From: an uncultured Flavobacteriales bacterium
GTDB taxonomy: Bacteria; Bacteroidota; Bacteroidia; Flavobacteriales_E; Vicingaceae
NCBI GenBank assembly: GCA_913056345.1
Contig: CAJXMH010000030.1
Span: forward strand, 1 to 32,938
Length of the DNA stretch: 32,938 nt
Reading direction: 5' to 3'
Shown: positions 3,288 through 32,938 of the stretch, one piece after another
Position numbering within the stretch: position 1 is the first letter of the stretch
How the letters are laid out: each line of letters begins with the position of its first letter
Made by a program: the position numbers and the translations under genes
The notes under the pieces: model-generated
Database searches by the model: none
Told to the model about the DNA's origin: nothing
What the model saw: the letters and a program-made list of their open reading frames with translations, nothing else

Positions 3288-4925
3288 GGCTTGAATACTC
3301 GAATTTCCAATTGAGAAAGTAATGATATTACTACTTTCTGCAATGTTATTTAGATCTATCCCTGTGTTTGTTGCAAGGTAGGTTAGTGCACTTGGATTGC
3401 TGGCATCATTAAAAGCAGTATTGTTTGAGGTACCCGGAAAAAGATCGCCTGCATCGCTGCGGTTTACTTCATTGTCAAGGTCGTTTAAACCATCCGCTTC
3501 CTCTAGGTCAACGCCTTTTAAGCTTTCATCTCCATTGACCCGATTTCCAAAGGAATTTGTCTGGTTCGTATTAATATGGAAAATGGCTAATCCTGTTCCC
3601 CTTAATGATTGGTCAAGGCCAATAGCTTGTCGGTTCTCCAGCAAGAAGTATTCATTGTTGAGGTTTGTGTTAATGCGATAGATCTCGTTCGGAGTGGTGC
3701 TAGCCGGATTAAGGGTGTAGTTGCCAAAAGTAGTTCCGGAGATAACTGTTGGAGTTTCCCATCCATTTTCAACTTTACACCATGCAGAGAAATTGCTTGG
3801 CAAGTGTTCGCCACCAAGCCAAGTTCCACTAGCCATGAGGCACCATTCACCAATTCCTTCTGAATCTCCATTTGAATCATCTGTATCGTAAAGGTCAGGC
3901 AGCCCAAGGTTATGACCGAATTCGTGACAGAATACCCCTATGCCTACTAGGTTTTGATTACTGCCGCTTGTTCTGGTTTCAGGGTTCATCATGTAATCGT
4001 TGATGCTAACATTATCATAAGTGACAGCTCCTAGGTTGCCACCTGCCATTACCCAGCGGTGCGACCAAATGTATTGGGTTCTGCCGCCTTGTTCAGCGCC
4101 TGGTCCACTGTGTACTACCATGATTCCATCAACATCTCCGTCGCTGTCATTGTCGTAATTCGCGTAATTTACACCTGCAACTTCAGCGGCATCAACCGCT
4201 TCTCTTACTAAGTCTGCTGCCCGGTCATAGCCGCTATCGTTACTGTAATATAAATAACCGTTAGATGCTCTGTACCAACCCATAACGTCTACATCTATGG
4301 TTAATACACTATCAGAAGCTGTTTCATAGAAATATTTGAAGCTTCCATCTCCGCTCCTAAAGTTCTTTCCGTAAAGCAAGCTATCGAAGTCTGCTTTAGG
4401 ATAAATATTGTTTAAGTCAGGATAATCGATCAGTAATGCCAAGATTCGAATGTTTCCAGTAGTGGGATAGGTTTTGTTTTGAAGCTGGTTGCGCACTTGA
4501 TTTAGAACTGCATTTTTGAGGGGGTCAAAATCTGGCTTTAAGTGTTTTGATTGATTGGCTAAGAAGCTCTGTTCGGCTGCTGTTCTTGAAGTGGGGTTAG
4601 TGGCTAAAACTCCGGTTGGAACCAATTCGCCATTCAGCTTATTGGCATACTCGTAATTGCCTTGTGTATTTCGAACAATGGTGTAACCGTCCGTGGTCTC
4701 TGTCCAGGAGTTGTTCATATTTCCCTTTCCCACAATAGTGAGGGATGTGCTATTGGGCTGCACAATTAAAGTGGGTAGCGGAGATGCTATGCAGTTAGAA
4801 GGAGCAGGTATTGCTTCTTCCAAGCTGATCAAGGCAGGTTCTGAGCTTGGTTTTTGTTGCGCTTGACTTTGCGCAGAAACAGTGAAAACAAGTAAAAAAG
4901 ATAGGTAGCGTAAAGCGTACTTCAT
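1..4925 (-). CDS. Secreted M6-type metalloprotease with at least ten CUB modules (3' end outside window)
   Basis: The reading frame opens at the ATG complementary to 4923-4925 and stays open to the left edge, so 1641 codons are visible and the C-terminus is missing. Residues 1-23 look like a signal peptide (MKYALRYLSFLLVFTVSAQS). A propeptide-like stretch follows (WTETTDGYTIVRN around residues 65-80). The zinc motif HEFGHNLGLPD is at residues 334-344, with H334, E335, H338 and D344, as in M6 (immune inhibitor A-like) peptidases. From about residue 547 the protein is a string of CUB-like modules of about 115 residues each, sharing NCSWLIQPPG, VYDG and GWEATYSS motifs. The protein is presumably extracellular. 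A T9SS sorting domain would be expected at the unseen C-terminus, which is inference. Convergent strand context: it lies downstream of the S24 regulator but has its own 89-bp gap. Confidence 0.9.
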   Translation of the reverse strand, partial: MKYALRYLSFLLVFTVSAQSQAQQKPSSEPALISLEEAIPAPSNCIASPLPTLIVQPNSTSLTIVGKGNMNNSWTETTDGYTIVRNTQGNYEYANKLNGELVPTGVLATNPTSRTAAEQSFLANQSKHLKPDFDPLKNAVLNQVRNQLQNKTYPTTGNIRILALLIDYPDLNNIYPKADFDSLLYGKNFRSGDGSFKYFYETASDSVLTIDVDVMGWYRASNGYLYYSNDSGYDRAADLVREAVDAAEVAGVNYANYDNDSDGDVDGIMVVHSGPGAEQGGRTQYIWSHRWVMAGGNLGAVTYDNVSINDYMMNPETRTSGSNQNLVGIGVFCHEFGHNLGLPDLYDTDDSNGDSEGIGEWCLMASGTWLGGEHLPSNFSAWCKVENGWETPTVISGTTFGNYTLNPASTTPNEIYRINTNLNNEYFLLENRQAIGLDQSLRGTGLAIFHINTNQTNSFGNRVNGDESLKGVDLEEADGLNDLDNEVNRSDAGDLFPGTSNNTAFNDASNPSALTYLATNTGIDLNNIAESSNIITFSIGNSSIQACNGGDTLTTASGTFDDGSGTANYANSLNCSWLIQPPGASSINLTFNRFDVDNTIDRVAVYDGNSFSAPLIGTYTGNSIPAAINSSGGSLYVEFTTNGSVTASGWEATYSSSGSSPTCSGTTTLTAVSGTFDDGSGSGIDYAPNLNCSWLINPPANIDNVELYFDSLDLAGGDTLFVYDGVNASAPLINSYTGANLPAFITSSGRNLFIEFNTDANLESRGWQLSYAGNNGCSGQKTFTAASGTFTDGTAATASYNNNSNCSWLIQPPGATFISLNWNRFLLEGGFDFLRVYDGSSSAATLIGTYSGATPPPTINSSGGSLFIQFTSDATVTLTGFEATYSSTTTQCLANRLLTANSGNFSDGSGTNNYQNNLNCGWLIQPPSANSITINFSAFDTEANVDSVVIYDGVDNTAPIAASFSGNTLPPSTLINGPAAFVEFITNGSGSAAGWDASYTSTSSLSCSGLTNLTAANGSFDDGSGTANYDNNLNCSWLIQPTGSPSLISLDFTTMSLSFGDFVRVYDGTSSAGTLIGTRIGTFTGGSLRAFSGAMFIEFVSNGSGTSAGWDASYSSSNTFCVLNNTFTGTSGAFADGSGSNNYANNSDCSWLIQPTAPNLQIRLNFNFFDTELNNDTVTIYDGPNSSAPILQTLSGNINPPPGVISSSGSSMFITFKSNGSVNRNGWSAFYSTQIIPACSGTTNLTANTGTFDDGSAATANYISNSNCQWLIQPPGANRIALNWNRFDTQAGRDSVIVYDGSTTSAPIIGAFSGTSLPSRVNSSGGQMLVVFRSDNFGNLSGWEATYNSTTSQCFSNLTLTNPRDTLRDGSGASNYGDNLNCSWLIQPGTAQSINLDFLSIDLLNGDSVFVYDGTSNAAPLLGAFSGNTVPATINSTGGSMFVEFITDASGGAAGWTAAYDIVSSLSCVGTTNLTAPSGSFDDGSGPANYDNNLNCSWLIQPSGNPISITLTLNNSNLGSFGDRVRIYDGNSAAGTLIGNFFFNNTGTVTAFSGSMFVVFTTDAGGVGRGWDATYNSSNSYCSPNTTFTANFGNFNDGSPFGTNYINNTDCSWLIQPTAPNVAIALNIISIDTELGTDTIT

Positions 4926-5014
4926 AACGTTATTTTTAACAGGAAAATAGACGTATAAAAGTACGCAATGGTTGTCTAACGAAAAACAGCTAATATTCTG
5001 TTTTATAGCTTGTT

Positions 5015-5824
5015 CTATTCAGGCTTTTTTTTGAGGGTGTTTTTTATTTCTCTGAGCTCTTTGTTAATGTCTAGCATGCTGTTACTCAGTTGGTCTCGAC
5101 TTAGGTTGGGTTCAGGAATTTCTGCACTGATGTAATTCACAAATTTCCATACTTCAACCACTTCGTTCACATTGATTTCGTAAGGCTTATAAGTTGGATT
5201 TGTAGAGCAAAGCAGTAAACTTTGATTTTTGTCAAATTGCTTGTAAACAACTTTGAAAACCACTCCGTCAGATTCGGTGACAATGAGGTAGGGATAGCCA
5301 TCTTTGATGGTCTTCCAATTTTGGATGAATTCTCCTGTAACCCAAGATCGATCTGAAACAGGTGGCATAGAGTCACCGCTAATTTGAAAAGTACGGTATT
5401 TGCGATTTCTGTCTAAAAAAGGAAGCTGGAAAGTGGGCAGCACTTTGATAAAGTCAGGGTCTCCATAACCTGCGGTATAGCCAGCTTTTGCTTTCACATT
5501 TACCAACTCAATGTTCTCTTCATTTTGCTGGTCTACCGTAGTGGCTAAAACCCTCAATTTTCCTCCGGTAATGTCAATGTCCACCCCTTGTTCGAGTTGA
5601 CTAAGGTAAACCTCCGATACGGTGTTTAGGTCTAGCTTTAAAAGTTTGTCAATGGAGACTTTAAAAAAATCAGAAAATTTTAAAAGGGTCTCAAAATTGG
5701 GCTCAGTGTTACCGAGTTCGTAACCACTTAATGAACTTCTTTTGATTTCTAACTCTTTTGCTAGGTCTTCTTGAGAGATCTTTTTTCTCTTACGGAGAAG
5801 TTGAATGTTGCGGCCAAAATGCAT
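5015..5824 (-). CDS. HTH plus S24 peptidase repressor, LexA/CI-like (269 aa)
   Basis: Residues 7-60 form an XRE-type helix-turn-helix (ISQEDLAKELEIKRSSLSGY). Residues about 105-235 form an S24/LexA-like autoproteolytic domain. S152 lies in GDSM and K191 in FKVV, 39 residues apart, close to the 37 of E. coli LexA S119/K156. A candidate Ala-Gly cleavage bond is A114-G115 in KAKAGY, 38 residues before the Ser, with A118-G119 as an alternative. The last 30 residues are charged and helical-looking. The family represses stress genes and is inactivated by RecA-stimulated self-cleavage; that this protein does so is inferred from the residues present. A perfect palindromic operator sits over its own -7 box, and a related site lies before dinB. 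It could alternatively be a domesticated phage repressor, but no phage genes are nearby. Confidence 0.88.
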   Translation of the reverse strand: MHFGRNIQLLRKRKKISQEDLAKELEIKRSSLSGYELGNTEPNFETLLKFSDFFKVSIDKLLKLDLNTVSEVYLSQLEQGVDIDITGGKLRVLATTVDQQNEENIELVNVKAKAGYTAGYGDPDFIKVLPTFQLPFLDRNRKYRTFQISGDSMPPVSDRSWVTGEFIQNWKTIKDGYPYLIVTESDGVVFKVVYKQFDKNQSLLLCSTNPTYKPYEINVNEVVEVWKFVNYISAEIPEPNLSRDQLSNSMLDINKELREIKNTLKKKPE

Positions 5825-27598: not shown

Positions 27599-28135
27599 TT
27601 ACCATCTGTTGATCTTGCTTAAAAGGTCCCACAGAACCACTCCTACGCTTACTGAAATATTAAGAGAGTGCTTCGTTCCAAATTGCGGAATCTCAATTGC
27701 TCCATCGCAGGCATCAACTACTTCTTGCTGAACCCCTTTTACTTCATGCCCAAAAAATAAGGCGAGTCGCTCAGTAGGGTCAACCGAAAATTCATGAAGG
27801 TTTACAGCGCCTTCCGTTTGCTCTATAGACAAGCAGCGGTAGCGCTTCTTTTTTAAGGCTTCAACCGCATCAAGGGTGTTTTCAAAGTATTTCCAGTCTA
27901 CTGATTCTGTGGCACCAAGGGCAGTCTTGTTGATTTCACGATGTGGAGGTTTAGCCGTAATGCCACAAAGGTAGATCGCTTCTATCGCGAAAGCATCAGC
28001 AGTTCTAAAGGCTGCTCCTACATTGTTTAAACTCCTGATGTTATCCAAGACCAGCACTAGCGGATTTTTAGGCATTTCTTTAAAGCTTGAAAGCTCAGGT
28101 CTGTCTAATTCTTCGTTTTTTAGTTTCCGGTCCAC
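27599..28135 (-). CDS. SpoU/TrmH-family RNA 2'-O-methyltransferase (178 aa)
   Basis: The three SpoU motifs are clear: LDNIRSLNNVGAAFRTADAF (motif 1, about residues 30-49), LFFGHEVKGVQQEVVDACD (motif 2) and IPQFGTKHSLNISVSVGVVL (motif 3), which form the knotted SAM-binding site. There is no extra N-terminal substrate-binding domain, so it is a minimal SPOUT enzyme like TrmL or TrmH. It should methylate a ribose 2'-OH in tRNA or rRNA; the exact nucleotide cannot be told. It is divergent from mutS with 96 bases between start codons. Confidence 0.9.
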   Translation of the reverse strand: MDRKLKNEELDRPELSSFKEMPKNPLVLVLDNIRSLNNVGAAFRTADAFAIEAIYLCGITAKPPHREINKTALGATESVDWKYFENTLDAVEALKKKRYRCLSIEQTEGAVNLHEFSVDPTERLALFFGHEVKGVQQEVVDACDGAIEIPQFGTKHSLNISVSVGVVLWDLLSKINRW

Positions 28136-28231
28136 GGCTTTATTTTTTGTGAAAAACTATTGATAAATCAGGCTTTCAAAAGTACTAAGCCCTAGGGCAT
28201 CTTATTACTTTTAGGCTTTAAAATAGCTTAG

Positions 28232-30871
28232 TTGGCAAAGAAGACAAAAGGTAAAAAGCAGTCAGGCAAGGAAACGCCTTTAATGAAACAATACTATCAG
28301 ATCAAAGGGAAGTATCCCGATGCGCTGCTGTTGTTTCGAGTAGGAGATTTCTATGAAACCTTTGGGGAAGATGCAGAACGCGCTGCAGGAGTTTTGGGAA
28401 TTGTGCTTACCAAAAGGCACAATGGTTCTGCCAATGAAATTGCCTTAGCAGGTTTTCCGCACCATTCCCTTGATTCATATCTGCCAAAATTAGTGCGCGC
28501 CGGTCATCGGGTAGCAATTTGCGATCAGTTAGAAGATCCTAAAAAGACCAAAAAAATAGTCAAGCGTGGTATAACTGAATTGGTGACGCCAGGAGTGTCT
28601 TACAATGATGAGGTGCTTCAAAAGGATAGCAATAACTTTTTGGCTGCCGTTCATTTTGGAGCTAAAAATGCGCTTGGTATTTCTTTTTTAGACGTTTCCA
28701 CCGGAGAGTTTTTGACAGCAGAAGGCGATGAGGAATACATCGATAAGCTTTTGCAAAGCTTCAATCCTTCTGAAGTGCTTTTTCAGAAGCAAAAGAAAAA
28801 GGCTTTTGAAGCAGCTTTTGGAACTTCCTTTTTTACTTATATGCTTGAGGATTGGGTTTTTACAACTGAGTTTGGAGAAGAAACCTTACTTAAGCACTTT
28901 AGCACCAATTCCTTAAAAGGTTTTGGGGTGCATGAAATGGAGGAAGGAATTATAGCTGCAGGCGCTGCTTTGCACTATTTAGCAGATACCCGTCATGATC
29001 AACTAAAGCACATTGCAGCATTGAGTCGCATTGAAGAGGAACGTTATGTTTGGCTTGACCGCTTTACCATTCGCAACTTGGAGCTCATGTATTCTCCGCA
29101 TGAAGGGGCAACCACCTTAATTGATGTGCTTGATGAAACCATTTCTCCCATGGGAGGAAGAATGCTTAAACGCTGGATTGCACTTCCCCTGAAAGAACTA
29201 AAGCCCATTCAAGAAAGGCTTTCTGCGGTAGAATATTTGTTGAAAGACCAGTCCATAAGCGAAAAGCTAAAACGTGAAATTGCTCAAATCGGAGATCTTG
29301 AACGCCTAATCTCTAAAGTTTCTACCGCTAGGATCAACCCTAGAGAAATGGTTCAGTTAAGGCAAGCGATCAGTATGATCGAACCAGTCAAAAAAGATTG
29401 TGCTTCAGCAAAAAATGAATCATTAAAACGCATTGCAGAGCAACTGAATCCTTGTATCTCTATTTTGAATAAGTTATCCGAACAGCTGCAAGATGAACCG
29501 CCGGTTTTGGTGCAAAAAGGGAATGTGATCAAAGAAGGAGTAAGTGCAGAATTGGATGAACTCAGAAATTTGCAAAAGTCCGGCAAAGACCGCCTTGCCG
29601 AAATGCAACAGAGGGAAATCGAAAAAACTGGTATTTCTTCTCTAAAAATAGCCTTTAACAATGTTTTTGGCTATTACATTGAAGTGAGGAATACCCATAA
29701 GGATAAAGTGCCTGAGCAGTGGATTAGAAAACAAACGCTTGTAAGCGCTGAACGCTACATTACGGAAGAATTAAAGGAATATGAGTCGAAGATCTTAGGT
29801 GCTGAAGAGAAGATATTAAGCTTAGAGACAGATTTGTTTAACCGCTTGGTGTTGGAAGTAGCTGAATATATTTCACCCATACAACTCAATGCCAATTTAC
29901 TAGCTCGCTTAGATTGTTTAATGGCCTTCGCTACCATTGCTGAGGCAAGAAATTATACCAAGCCTGAACTGAACGAAGGATTGGCAATTGACATAAAATC
30001 AGGTCGACACCCTGTGATTGAACAGAATTTACCTTTGGGTGAGCATTATGTGGCCAACGATATCTATTTGGATAATGAAGCGCAGCAAGTGATGATGATT
30101 ACTGGACCGAATATGTCGGGTAAATCTGCTCTTTTACGGCAAACTGCACTAATCACTTTAATGGCTCAGGTGGGAAGTTTTGTGCCCGCTAAAAGCGCCA
30201 AAATTGGACTAGTAGACAAGATCTTTACCCGAGTTGGGGCTTCCGACAATATTTCATCAGGGGAGTCGACTTTCATGGTGGAGATGAATGAAACCGCAAG
30301 CATCTTGAATAACATCTCAGAACGCAGCCTGATCTTGTTGGATGAAATTGGTCGCGGAACCAGCACCTATGATGGTATTTCTATCGCATGGGCTATTGCA
30401 GAATACTTGCATGAGAACAAAATGGCTAATCCCAAGACGCTTTTTGCAACCCATTACCATGAATTGAATGAAATGGCTAAAAGCTTTAGCCGAGTTAAGA
30501 ACTTCAATGTGTCGGTAAAAGAGGTAAAGAAGAAGATCATCTTCATGCGCAAGTTGGTGCCAGGAGGCAGTAACCATAGCTTTGGTATTCATGTGGCAAA
30601 AATGGCTGGTATGCCGGCTACCTTAATCCGAAGGGCCAATCAGATCTTGGAGGAACTGGAGCAGAAGCATCAAAACAACAGCACTCAAGAAACCTTGACC
30701 GAAGCCCAACGAAAAAGTGATTACCAATTGAGCTTTTTCCAATTAGACGACCCTGTTTTAGAGCAAATTAAAGAAGAACTCACTAAGATAGAGATAGATA
30801 CTTTAACCCCAGTGGAGGCTCTTATGAAGCTGAACGAGATCAAAAAAATGGTGGGAGGGAAACAGCAATAA
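28232..30871 (+). CDS. mutS: DNA mismatch repair ATPase MutS (879 aa)
   Basis: The mismatch-reading motif FYETFGEDA is at residues 40-48 with F40 and E42 (E. coli F36 and E38), which marks it as MutS1 rather than MutS2. The Walker A GPNMSGKS is at residues 625-632, and [14 protein letters not shown] and [16 protein letters not shown] follow. Length is normal. I take the TTG at 28232 as start because it gives [20 protein letters not shown], as usual in Bacteroidota; the first ATG, at 28283, would remove 17 basic residues. It binds mispaired bases and recruits MutL. The end has no hairpin terminator before the tRNA promoter. Confidence 0.96.
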
Positions 30872-30899
30872 AAAAAGGCCACGATTTTTTAATTTGGGC

Positions 30900-30929
30900 T
30901 TTGTTGAAAATAAAAAAATGCTACTTTTG
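30900..30929 (+). promoter_or_regulatory. Strong tRNA promoter (TTTG / TACTTTTG)
   Basis: TTTG (30900-30903) is followed after 18 bases by TACTTTTG (30922-30929), a full match to the Bacteroidota TTG-N17-23-TAnnTTTG promoter. A start near 30936 would give a leader of about 185 bases before tRNA-Gly that includes the tRNA relic. Confidence 0.75.
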
Positions 30930-30970
30930 TAGCCCTCTTAAAGAGGAACGATCTTATCAATATTGAACAA

Positions 30971-31080
30971 GCGAGAGTAGCCTGCCTATCGGCAGACAGG
31001 CTCAGCTGCCTGTCCGGCTTTTAAAAAAGACGGAGTAGAGCAAGATCAGCCTAAGGCTAATCGGGGTAGCGGTTTGTCTC
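30971..31080 (+). pseudogene. Degenerate tRNA-Gly copy interrupted by palindromic sequence
   Basis: Collinear pieces of the downstream tRNA-Gly recur here: GCGAGAGTAGC (30971-30981, exact 5' end, also preceded by AA in both), TCAGCTG (31002-31008), GTAGAGCA (31035-31042), then GCC-AAGG-like bases, TCGGGGTAGCGG (31061-31072, one mismatch to TCGGGGTCGCGG) and GTCTC (31076-31080). Between the first three pieces are 20 and 26 extra bases that are rich in CTGCC/GGCAG and GACAGGC/GCCTGTC palindromes. The anticodon arm is replaced by an AGCC-TAA-GGCT hairpin and no T arm remains, so it cannot be a working tRNA. Alternatively it might be a leader RNA that happens to keep tRNA-like ends. Confidence 0.65.
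30979..31020 (+). repeat. Palindromic insert inside the tRNA relic
   Basis: CTGCC-TATC-GGCAG (30984-30997 region) and GACAGGC-TCAGCT-GCCTGTC (perfect 7-bp stem, about 30995-31014) form two overlapping hairpins. CTGCC/GGCAG stems also occur at 16591-16603 in this window. This looks like a member of a short dispersed palindromic (BIME-like) family. Confidence 0.55.
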
Positions 31081-31121
31081 AAAGAAGAAAAGAAGTTCAT
31101 TACATTTTGAAAGATAAATAA

Positions 31122-31194
<73 letters not shown>

Positions 31195-31196
31195 CA

Positions 31197-31226
31197 AAAT
31201 CCTCCTGACAAGGGAGGATTTTTTTT
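31197..31226 (+). terminator. Terminator-like hairpin between the two tRNA genes
   Basis: AAATCCTCC (31197-31205) pairs perfectly with GGAGGATTT (31213-31221) over loop TGACAAG and runs into a stretch of eight T. A second perfect hairpin, TTGAAT-TATT-ATTCAA (31225-31240), fills the remaining space up to tRNA-Leu. The pair may act as a terminator or as processing signals. Confidence 0.8.
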
Positions 31227-31241
31227 GAATTATTATTCAAT

Positions 31242-31326
31242 GCTCGAGTGGTGGAATTGGTAGACACGCAGGACTTAAAATCCTGTGGCCATTGCGGCCG
31301 TGCGGGTTCAAGTCCCGCCTCGAGTA
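31242..31326 (+). tRNA. tRNA-Leu (anticodon TAA)
   Basis: An 85-base class II tRNA: acceptor GCTCGAG/CTCGAGT (G-T at the end pair), anticodon stem CAGGA/TCCTG with loop CTTAAAA, long variable arm TGGCCATTGCGGCCG-like, T arm GCGGG/CCCGC with loop TTCAAGT, discriminator A. No encoded CCA. Only 47 bases separate it from tRNA-Gly, with no room for a promoter other than inside the tRNA-Gly gene. Confidence 0.95.
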
Positions 31327-31336
31327 CTTTGATTAG

Positions 31337-31369
31337 AAAGGGATTGCTAGAAATGGTAATCCCTTTTTT
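31337..31369 (+). terminator. Rho-independent terminator after tRNA-Leu
   Basis: AAAGGGATT (31337-31345) pairs with AATCCCTTT (31358-31366) over a 12-base loop, running into a T-rich tail to 31369. It ends the tRNA transcript. Confidence 0.85.
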
Positions 31370-31384
31370 AATGTTAAAAAATTG

Positions 31385-31410
31385 GTGGAGTGTCCCTGTG
31401 GAGTGTTCCT
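31385..31410 (+). repeat. Tandem 13-bp direct repeat next to tRNA-Leu
   Basis: GTGGAGTGTCCCT (31385-31397) and GTGGAGTGTTCCT (31398-31410) match at 12 of 13 positions and are adjacent. They lie in the 184-base stretch between the tRNA terminator and the unknown gene at 31554, where I see no coding sequence. Direct repeats of this kind beside a tRNA 3' end resemble arm-type recombinase binding sites, but no integrase gene is visible, so that reading is tentative. Confidence 0.5.
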
Positions 31411-31553
31411 TCTCTTTGGGTAGGTATTGTGGACCTTGACGGTGGCTAAGTAGAAGCTGTATTACCAACCGTGTAATCATAAACCCTAAAAATTGGGGTC
31501 TATGTTGACATGAAAAGTAAAGCACTTATTGCTTATTCGAATTTGGAATTTTT

Positions 31554-32450
31554 TTAAAAAGGAGCTTCATCGCTAAATTTTAGGGTCAAGTATCTTTCCT
31601 TATCATAGATCTCGGTGAATTTAAAAATGGTTTCAAAAGCTTCTCCTTGCAGGTAGATCTCACGATCAATCACCTTTAGGGTGAATGGACTTTCATCATG
31701 CACCTCACAGTTCCATGAGCCGGAGTAAAAGTAATGCGAACTATTTAAGTCTGAAGCTTCCGAAAACCACGTTTCATCCAAAGACACATAACTAGTCAAA
31801 GCCTTTTGAATGCGGGCTAAATAACGCAACTCACTCTGTAGGTATTTTAAAGTAGCAAATAAGTTGAAAAAGGGCTGAAACGCTTTAATGTCCCAATCCA
31901 TCTGCAAACTCCAATAAAAGGACTGGTGCTTTTCTATCCAGTGGTTCAGCCGATCAGGGTTTAGGATGATTTGTGCCTGCTCATTTTTCAAGGCTTGCAC
32001 GGCATCTTCTGCATACTTTACCTTTTGGCGGTATTTATTGTCGGCTTTAAACCCAAGCTTTTCATCTTTGTAAGTATATAGGTCTAATGCATTTGGTCTC
32101 GCTGTCGGAAAAGTGCCTTCAAGGTAGCTAACTTGCTTGGTAGGTAAAGCAGTCCCGTTGATGAAATCATTTACTTGGTTTTGAAACTTGGGTGTTAAAA
32201 ACTTATCGTGAACTGCAACCACCTTTCCTTGAGCATCTCTTTCTACCCAAATGGCCTGGACGTGAGCACTTATAAGGTAGCAGATATAATAATGACCTGA
32301 GCCCTGCGGCAGGTTCCGAATCTTGACTTCAGCCTTGGGATCTCCGTATTGTTGAAGTTGATGCCTAATTACTACGCACTTGCGCAGAAAAGTGTAGTAG
32401 GGGAGGGAGAAATAAGTGATGGCGGGGGTGAAATATAATTTATCAGACAT
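31554..32450 (-). CDS. Hypothetical protein directly downstream of hsdR (298 aa)
   Basis: I do not recognise this family. It has no signal peptide or membrane helix and an ordinary mix of beta-type and charged helical sequence, with many aromatic residues. Notable stretches are GHYYICYLISAHVQAIWVE (residues 52-70), a Pro/Ala-rich GTFPTARPNALDLYTY, a helical centre with WIEKHQSFYWSLQMDWDIKAF, and a beta-rich end (CEVHDESPFTLKVIDREIYL). It starts two bases after the hsdR stop codon, so it is probably translated from the same transcript and may belong to the restriction locus. It could equally be an independent passenger of the island. No nuclease or methyltransferase motif is evident. Confidence 0.75.
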   Translation of the reverse strand: MSDKLYFTPAITYFSLPYYTFLRKCVVIRHQLQQYGDPKAEVKIRNLPQGSGHYYICYLISAHVQAIWVERDAQGKVVAVHDKFLTPKFQNQVNDFINGTALPTKQVSYLEGTFPTARPNALDLYTYKDEKLGFKADNKYRQKVKYAEDAVQALKNEQAQIILNPDRLNHWIEKHQSFYWSLQMDWDIKAFQPFFNLFATLKYLQSELRYLARIQKALTSYVSLDETWFSEASDLNSSHYFYSGSWNCEVHDESPFTLKVIDREIYLQGEAFETIFKFTEIYDKERYLTLKFSDEAPF

Positions 32451-32452
32451 GA

Positions 32453-32938
32453 CTATGCTCTTCTATCATAGACGCTTTGCCCATTGCCGTAATAATTAGA
32501 GAAAATGTGCTGATAAATTTCAGTGCTCAATGTATTCAATTCATTATCTGGATAGCTTTCTTGAGGGAGATGATACAATTGATCAGAAATGAATTGTTTA
32601 ACTTGAGCGGTAATTTGGCGGCTTTCATGCCATCTTTCAACGTTTAATTTTTCAGTCTTTAGTTTTTCCAAGGTTTCTTCTGCAACCTTTTTTACTTGCT
32701 TTTTATCTTTTGCATCTAAAGCTTTGTTTTTTGTCAACAGATCGAAAATAGCCAGGGTCTCTTGATCTTTTAAGTTTTCCTTAACGGCCCGCTTTTCTTC
32801 AAGCGTTAATTCTTTAACAAAATCATTCAATCGTTCAAAAGCCCTAACTGTGTTCTCTAATGACTTTCCATCATTATAAGCCTTAATTATTTCTTTGTAA
32901 CGTTCATAAAACTCTAAACGCAGCGGGTTCTCTCTTAA
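32453..32938 (-). CDS. hsdR: Type I restriction enzyme R subunit, C-terminal end (5' part outside window)
   Basis: The frame is open from the right edge, and 161 residues are visible before the TAG stop. LRENPLRLEFYERYKEIIKA, then AIFDLLTKNKALDAKDKKQV and KLNVERWHESRQITAQVKQF, ending QESYPDNELNTLSTEIYQHI, is the helical C-terminal region of HsdR that contacts the methyltransferase core. The ATG at 32830 is internal, not a start. The R subunit translocates DNA with its helicase motors and cuts it; those parts are beyond the edge, as are hsdM and hsdS. The next gene on the same strand starts two bases later. Confidence 0.85.
   Translation of the reverse strand, partial: LRENPLRLEFYERYKEIIKAYNDGKSLENTVRAFERLNDFVKELTLEEKRAVKENLKDQETLAIFDLLTKNKALDAKDKKQVKKVAEETLEKLKTEKLNVERWHESRQITAQVKQFISDQLYHLPQESYPDNELNTLSTEIYQHIFSNYYGNGQSVYDRRA

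What the first reader, a model, noticed from the sequence alone, without database searches (positions are those of the whole stretch)
30971..31080. tRNA-Gly relic split by palindromic DNA upstream of the intact tRNA-Gly
Four or five collinear fragments of the intact gene recur about 150 bases upstream, including an exact 11-base 5' end, but with palindromic insertions after the D-stem start and in the D loop. It lies in the leader of the same transcript. It may be an old tandem duplicate broken by a mobile palindrome, or a leader RNA that pairs with or mimics tRNA.
Basis: partly seen in the sequence, partly recalled or inferred. Interest (0 to 1): 0.55.

Follow-up and report, generated by a model that had tools for sequence, protein, structure and literature searches.

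The report
Hairpin-broken partial copy of tRNA-Gly gene
Just upstream of a normal glycine tRNA gene lies a broken, hairpin-filled partial copy of it, one example of a recurring pattern in this bacterial group in which tRNA genes carry truncated tandem copies, often next to small DNA-cutting enzyme genes.

Summary
Window 30971-31080 contains five collinear pieces of the intact tRNA-Gly(GCC) at 31122-31195, split by palindromes. Its chain score was reached by 0 of 2000 shuffles, 0 of 609 other window stretches and 0 of 4760 genome-sample stretches.

It is a 5' partial tandem copy, not a tRNA, lying between mutS and the intact gene, after a probable promoter.

The pattern recurs. In five Bacteroidota genomes, 43 of 174 tRNAs have at least 11 nt of themselves within 600 bp; 5' pieces lie mostly upstream, 3' pieces mostly downstream. 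Palindromes sit in the D arm, anticodon arm or T loop. The palindrome's only other genomic copy (2 mismatches) is also inside a tRNA relic.

Small GIY-YIG nuclease ORFs lie beside tRNAs at 15 of 25 loci; one relative has a tenfold tandem array with tRNA ends. Phage SegB, a GIY-YIG nuclease that cuts tRNA genes and drives their amplification, is a published precedent.

Most likely origin: partial segmental duplication after breakage in tRNA arms, then decay with hairpin insertion. The nuclease's role is inferred; none is present at this locus. A functional leader RNA is not supported here, not excluded in general.

The parts
28232..30871 (+). mutS-like gene upstream (879 aa ORF)
30900..30929 (+). 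probable Bacteroidota-type promoter (TTTG ... TACTTTTG)
   Evidence: read in sequence; by eye a similar TA..TTTG motif precedes the leader in relatives; consensus is recalled, not tested
30971..30981 (+). relic piece 1 = tRNA-Gly positions 1-11 (exact)
30980..31001 (+). imperfect palindrome inserted in the D arm after GTAG
31000..31008 (+). relic piece 2 = tRNA-Gly positions 10-18
31009..31034 (+). second insert, D loop, predicted hairpin
31035..31042 (+). relic piece 3 = tRNA-Gly positions 19-26
31044..31062 (+). anticodon arm replaced by a near-palindrome; anticodon lost
   Evidence: read in sequence
31061..31067 (+). relic piece 4 = tRNA-Gly positions 41-47 (variable region)
31076..31080 (+). 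relic piece 5, 5 nt, weak
31122..31195 (+). intact tRNA-Gly(GCC)
31242..31327 (+). intact tRNA-Leu(TAA), next gene

Best explanation
The feature is a decaying 5' partial tandem duplicate of the tRNA-Gly(GCC) gene in the leader of the tRNA-Gly/tRNA-Leu unit, with hairpin-forming DNA inserted into its D arm and substituted for its anticodon arm. Shown: the relic, its polarity, and recurrence of the same architecture at many tRNAs and in several Bacteroidota. Inferred: breaks in the hairpin arms of a tRNA gene were repaired by segmental tandem duplication. Because one intact copy must survive, 5' fragments are left upstream and 3' fragments downstream, and these free copies then take up palindromes. 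Also inferred, and less certain: the breaks are made, at least at some loci, by small chromosomal GIY-YIG endonucleases that live beside tRNA genes, working like phage SegB. At this locus no nuclease gene was found, though the orthologous operon of a relative has two such ORFs, one with an internal stop.
For: Chain far above controls. 43 of 174 tRNAs in five genomes have own fragments within 600 bp: 34 '5' up' and 39 '3' down' events against 12 of the opposite polarity (P about 8e-12 by event, though arrays make events non-independent). Own-identity rate is 24.7% against 210 of 5820 (3.6%) for other-identity pairs. The palindrome's other genomic copy lies in a tRNA-Leu(CAA) relic. Relatives G004, G006 and G007 have Gly relics with different palindromes. 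Perfect palindromes (stem 7 or more) occur in 15 of 29 5'-relic and 19 of 36 3'-relic intervals against 10 of 108 and 17 of 103 control flanks. Among tRNAs of 80 nt or less, breaks fall in the D arm (10 of 15) or at the anticodon arm (5 of 15) for 5' relics, and 14-21 nt from the 3' end, about the T loop (9 of 17), for 3' relics. 15 of 25 small GIY-YIG loci lie within 1 kb of a tRNA, all 15 on its strand (12 downstream, 3 upstream), chance about 2.2% per locus. G009 has ten 457-bp units of GIY-YIG ORF plus tRNA-Met 3' end, and five GIY-YIG ORFs (the last cut short) with four tRNA-Asn 3' ends at 379-bp spacing. G004 has two GIY-YIG ORFs right after tRNA-Leu in the orthologous operon. SegB cuts tRNA genes (its motif is, by my reading, the T loop on the other strand) and is needed for tandem amplification (PMC13096335).
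Against: No GIY-YIG hit in window 30851-32000 (tblastn with two such proteins), and most relic-bearing tRNAs have no GIY-YIG ORF within 1 kb (15 nuclease loci beside tRNAs against 43 relic-bearing tRNAs). The window's own palindrome is imperfect and fails the perfect-stem test (counted as 'none'). 3' relics are not special to this group: E. coli K-12 has them at 12 of 56 tRNAs in the stretches taken, no rarer than here (27 of 174; P 0.31). The Leu-CAA relic with its palindromes is identical over 61 nt between two genera while the 47-column spacer has 11 differences and the flanks diverged, which simple decay does not predict. Three of the four added genomes (G004, G006, G060) were chosen because a relic had been seen in them.
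Confidence: 0.6

Rival explanations
1. REP/RAYT-type mobile palindromes jumped into a pre-existing spare tRNA copy. The tetranucleotide GTAG present in the tRNA D arm (and at the foot of REPs) gives the target site.
For: The palindrome directly follows GTAG in the window and in G006. One Y1 transposase-like gene was found in the genome, beside tRNA-Gln, which has a short 3' piece downstream. E. coli RAYT cuts the GTAG motif of single-stranded REPs (PMC3733652, passages).
Against: Only two copies of this palindrome in the genome. Unrelated palindromes occupy the same arms in other relics. The Y1 ORF is only 129 aa from its ATG and may be degraded. PMC3733652 lists CGTC, not GTAG, repeats for Bacteroidetes. 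It does not explain the duplication or the polarity.
Confidence: 0.2
2. The relic is a functional leader RNA: hairpins upstream of the tRNA that guide processing, antitermination or tRNA-dependent regulation.
For: It lies between probable promoter and tRNA. The Leu-CAA relic is identical over 61 nt in G000 and G004 with a diverged spacer. Anticodon-arm palindromes differ in sequence but stay hairpins in the Asn 3' relics of G009, G019 and G025. The G004 Gly relic folds with z = -4.0 and the Leu-CAA relic with z = -2.5.
Against: The window relic has z = -1.0, 34 of 200 shuffles fold as well. A Gly relic is absent from most relatives (5' relic at 6 of 51 mutS loci; 4 of 25 genomes). No T arm. 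Gly relics of G000 and G004 carry different inserts.
Confidence: 0.13
3. Ordinary replication slippage or unequal recombination at tRNA hairpins made the partial duplicate, with no nuclease and no transposase; perfect palindromes arose by snap-back copying.
For: In two relics the anticodon arm is the 5' half followed by its own reverse complement (Leu-CAA, Leu-TAG). E. coli also has tandem tRNA 3' ends. Most relic-bearing tRNAs have no nuclease ORF beside them.
Against: Does not explain 15 of 25 GIY-YIG loci beside tRNAs, nor a palindrome shared between different tRNAs (Leu-CAA and Leu-TAG of G004).
Confidence: 0.25
4. Attachment-site fragment left by an integrated phage or island.
For: Known source of prokaryotic tRNA fragments (PMC9897764, abstract and passages).
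Against: Only about 150 bp between copies; the fragment is the 5' end, upstream, broken inside by palindromes. The ORFs of 28000-32938 were not searched against families, so a hidden integrase is not formally excluded.
Confidence: 0.02

Closest known systems
E. coli tyrT/tyrV repeats with rttR RNA (and the 18-19-nt 3' repeats at lys and arg tRNAs)
   Same: Short copies of a tRNA gene's end next to the intact gene, broken in the T loop; seen here in K-12; the '178-bp repeat' name is recalled
   Different: In the stretches taken E. coli has only 3' ends (0 of 56 with a 5' relic); arm-replacing palindromes were not looked for there; no GIY-YIG gene annotated in the tyr stretch
Phage T6 SegB GIY-YIG homing endonuclease and segmental tRNA amplification (PMC13096335)
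   Same: GIY-YIG ORF beside tRNA, tandem amplification of a tRNA-plus-nuclease segment, cut motif matching the T loop
   Different: Phage, intact tRNA amplified; here bacterial chromosomes, truncated tRNA copies. Three ORFs tested match no PHROG or NCBIfam family. Cutting not shown.
REP elements and RAYT transposases; Rickettsia palindromic elements (PMC3733652)
   Same: Short palindromes, sometimes inside genes, tagged by GTAG or CGTC
   Different: Here a two-copy family, both copies in tRNA relics; many unrelated palindromes at the same arms
tRNA fragments at integrated elements (PMC9897764)
   Same: Partial tRNA copy near an intact one
   Different: There about 9-23 kb of inserted DNA lies between copies (attR sites); here about 150 bp and a 5' piece

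Membership tests
tRNA gene (functional) | complete cloverleaf with anticodon and T arm | tested here: not met
   No ARAGORN or Rfam call on the relic
Partial tandem tRNA duplicate | collinear exact pieces of the neighbouring tRNA beyond chance | tested here: met
Partial tandem tRNA duplicate | relatives with the empty state | tested here: met
   Gly: 21 of 25 genomes inspected have no relic; Leu-CAA: promoter joined directly to the tRNA in several relatives
REP element (GTAG type) | palindrome tagged by GTAG | tested here: inconclusive
   GTAG precedes the palindrome, but GTAG is also native tRNA sequence
REP element (GTAG type) | many dispersed copies in the genome | tested here: not met
   2 copies at 3 or fewer mismatches
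SegB-like amplification locus | GIY-YIG ORF beside the tRNA | tested here: not met
   Not met at this locus; met at the orthologous operon in G004 and at 15 of 25 small GIY-YIG loci
SegB-like amplification locus | nuclease cuts the tRNA gene | not testable with these tools
   needs biochemistry
tRNA-like leader RNA | conserved structure with covariation at this locus | tested here: inconclusive
   fold z -1.0; different inserts in relatives; no covariation count made at this locus
Phage/island attachment site | 3' tRNA fragment with an inserted element between copies | tested here: not met
   5' fragment, about 150 bp apart

The most novel reading that the evidence does not exclude
Bacteroidota chromosomes host a tRNA-parasitic system: free-standing GIY-YIG endonucleases cut tRNA genes in their hairpin arms, drive tandem segmental amplification of tRNA ends plus their own gene, and leave truncated copies whose arms are replaced by palindromes that can no longer be cut. 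The window's Gly relic would be an old scar of it.
Probability: 0.25. Interest if true: 0.8.

Novelty: new variant of a known kind. Interest (0 to 1): 0.58.

Why it matters
Partial tRNA copies are usually put down to integrated elements. Here about a quarter of tRNA genes in five genomes carry short-range broken copies with marked polarity, hairpins in the arms and a strong link to small GIY-YIG nucleases. That makes it directly testable whether chromosomal nucleases reshape tRNA gene copy number, as SegB does in phages. It also warns that tRNA leaders in this phylum may hold hairpin-rich relics that look like regulatory RNAs.

Tried and rejected
Chance similarity: rejected. Functional tRNA: rejected. 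Abundant mobile palindrome: rejected for this family; a search of the whole relic against its own genome gave, beyond itself, the second palindrome copy (E 0.017) and weaker hits with E from 0.39 up. Att-site fragment: rejected by layout. 'Only in Bacteroidota': rejected for 3' fragments by the E. coli control; kept only for 5' relics (19 of 174 against 0 of 56, P 0.005). One of the 57 E. coli ARAGORN calls (a tRNA-Arg TCG call in L376, on the strand opposite to the annotated Arg genes) was dropped as false, leaving the 56 annotated tRNAs. Leader boxA idea: GTTCTT is in 14 of 173 leaders against a shuffle mean of 3, max 8, too rare to build on. NCBIfam and PHROGs gave no family for three GIY-YIG proteins. 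PMC8040213 (passages) gave nothing on tRNA relics. Ten paper searches (three returned nothing, and several of the others listed only their best 10-15 papers) showed me no account of 5' palindrome-broken tRNA relics or of chromosomal GIY-YIG/tRNA arrays; most subscription papers and all bioRxiv preprints are missing from that library, so this is weak evidence of novelty. My notebook says 10 of 17 T-loop breaks and about 67 identical nt in the Leu-CAA relic (entry); the answers give 9 of 17 and 61, used here. Event counts treat array units separately, and two neighbouring tRNA-Val genes of G060 share the same relics, so events are not independent. The mutS set is the best 80 of a capped search.

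Full report
Observation. The stretch 30971-31080 holds five collinear exact pieces of the tRNA-Gly(GCC) gene at 31122-31195, in order, with the first 11 nt exact. A chain score that tolerates insertions gives 26; 2000 dinucleotide-preserving shuffles give a mean of 9.7 and a maximum of 21, 609 other window stretches a maximum of 16, and 4760 stretches from a 384-kb genome sample a maximum of 18. The pieces are split by an imperfect 22-nt palindrome in the D arm, a second insert in the D loop, and a near-palindrome in place of the anticodon arm. ARAGORN and Rfam call only the two intact tRNAs in the window.

Setting. The relic lies between mutS (28232-30871) and the intact tRNA-Gly, after a probable promoter at 30900-30929 (motif recalled), so probably in the leader of the same transcript; transcription was not tested. 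The order mutS, tRNA-Gly(GCC), tRNA-Leu(TAA) is common in Bacteroidota: of 80 mutS loci kept by a capped search, 51 have tRNA-Gly(GCC) on the same strand. Six of these 51 have a 5' relic upstream of the first one and nine have a 5' relic upstream or a 3' relic downstream. Among 25 genomes inspected from the relatives search, four (own, G004, G006 with at least three tandem units, G007) have a Gly relic, each with other palindromes, while others such as G009, G019 and G025 have none (two stray hits explained).

The pattern is general. The only other copy of the palindrome in the genome (2 mismatches) lies in a 5' relic of tRNA-Leu(CAA), just upstream of the intact gene. In five genomes (own, G004, G006, G009, and G060, the Draconibacterium mangrovi genome) 174 distinct tRNAs were scanned; 43 (8 of 33, 12 of 28, 11 of 34, 3 of 33, 9 of 46) have at least 11 nt of their own sequence within 600 bp. 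Events: 34 5' pieces upstream, 39 3' pieces downstream, 9 5' pieces downstream (8 of them in G060), 3 3' pieces upstream. Counting tRNAs, 19 have a 5' piece upstream and 27 a 3' piece downstream. As a rough background, other-identity tRNA pairs match in 210 of 5820 (8 of 1012 in the own genome); these share tRNA motifs and relics, so this overstates chance.

Palindromes. Perfect inverted repeats (stem 7 or more, loop 8 or less, AT-rich and terminator-like ones removed) are found in 15 of 29 5'-relic intervals and 19 of 36 3'-relic intervals, against 10 of 108 and 17 of 103 flanks of tRNAs without relics (5.5 and 6.5 per kb against 0.56 and 0.88). The window's own palindrome is imperfect and does not count in this test. 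For tRNAs of 80 nt or less, breaks in identity fall in the D arm (10 of 15) or at the anticodon arm (5 of 15) in 5' relics, and 14-21 nt from the 3' end (9 of 17), about the T loop, or 31-32 nt (4 of 17), just past the anticodon arm, in 3' relics. In G009 Asn and G006 Arg a like palindrome replaces the anticodon arm in both the 5' and the 3' relic of one tRNA, and in the Leu-CAA and Leu-TAG relics the arm is its own 5' half folded back.

GIY-YIG link. Small GIY-YIG ORFs (PF01541, under 200 aa) lie within 1 kb of a tRNA at 15 of 25 loci in the five genomes, all 15 on the tRNA's strand, 12 downstream and 3 upstream; chance is about 2.2% per locus. In G009 ten 457-bp units of GIY-YIG ORF plus the last 27 nt of tRNA-Met follow the intact gene, and five GIY-YIG ORFs (the last cut short) with four copies of the last 32 nt of tRNA-Asn at 379-bp spacing follow another. 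In G004 two such ORFs, one with an internal stop, follow tRNA-Leu in the operon orthologous to the window's; in window 30851-32000 none was found. PMC13096335 (abstract and sections 7, 9, 10 read) shows that phage T6 SegB, a GIY-YIG endonuclease, cuts inside tRNA genes with a motif that I read as the T loop on the other strand, and is needed for tandem amplification of a tRNA-segB segment.

Control outside the phylum. In 14 stretches of E. coli K-12, 13 of 57 ARAGORN calls have own copies; one is an opposite-strand false call, leaving 12 of 56, all 18-19-nt 3' ends at Tyr, Lys and Arg genes and none 5'. So 3' tandem ends are a wider theme (tyrT/rttR), no rarer in E. coli (12 of 56 against 27 of 174, P 0.31), while 5' relics like the window's were seen only in the Bacteroidota set (19 of 174 against 0 of 56, Fisher P 0.005). 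The stretches were picked for tRNA clusters, not at random.

Against simple decay. The Leu-CAA relic is identical over 61 nt, palindromes included, between G000 and G004, while the 47-column spacer to the intact gene has 11 differences and both flanks have diverged. Of 60 genomes searched (own included), only the own genome and G004 matched across relic and gene; G048, of another family, has weaker pieces that may be a similar relic and were not followed up. In genus g10 the anticodon-arm palindrome of the Asn 3' relic differs between G009, G019 and G025 but stays a hairpin. Either the hairpins have a use, or conversion keeps them. At the Gly locus there is no such sign: fold z is -1.0, with 34 of 200 shuffles as stable, and relatives carry different inserts; the G004 Gly relic itself folds strongly (z -4.0).

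Verdict. A real, decaying 5' partial tandem tRNA copy with arm-replacing palindromes, one case of a recurrent process. That it is a duplicate is close to certain; that breaks in tRNA arms, partly by GIY-YIG nucleases, cause it is a good but unproven model.

Noticed in passing
L349 (G009:C9:905000-911000) and L350 (G009:C9:624200-627400): Ten 457-bp units (GIY-YIG ORF + tRNA-Met 3' end, nearly identical) and five GIY-YIG ORFs with four tRNA-Asn 3' ends at 379-bp spacing, in tandem after the intact tRNAs.
   Followed up: partly
L074 (own genome, tRNA-Leu CAA) and L227 (G004): Leu-CAA relic with palindromes identical over 61 nt between two genera although spacer and flanks diverged; unexplained by decay.
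   Followed up: partly
L163 (G000:C14 about 4599-5390): The one Y1-transposase-like hit of the genome (129-aa ORF) lies beside tRNA-Gln and its short 3' piece; by eye a nearby repeat resembles the tRNA-Arg relic palindrome.
   Followed up: partly
L159 (G000:C2 about 167200-168000): A small GIY-YIG ORF lies near the tmRNA gene, with segments repeated between them (by eye).
   Followed up: no
L049 (G000:C13 9675-9748, upstream of the gene): Three tandem 63-bp units, each the first 12 nt of tRNA-Arg(TCT) plus an imperfect palindrome, directly before the intact gene.
   Followed up: partly
L224 and L227 (G004), L074 (own): Anticodon arms of Leu relics are the 5' half followed by its own reverse complement, as if made by snap-back copying.
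   Followed up: no
L373, L375 and L376 (E. coli K-12): Lys and Arg tRNA genes carry 18-19-nt 3'-end copies downstream, like the tyrT repeats.
   Followed up: no
G048:C152 about 2607-2775: In another family, pieces matching the Leu-CAA relic and gene start (80% and 97%) suggest a similar relic.
   Followed up: no
tRNA leaders of the five genomes: GTTCTT within 60 nt upstream of 14 of 173 tRNAs against a shuffle mean of 3; looks like a boxA (recalled).
   Followed up: no
L351, L360 and a few other loci: Runs of N beside or within the GIY-YIG/relic stretches, either assembly gaps or withheld sequence.
   Followed up: no
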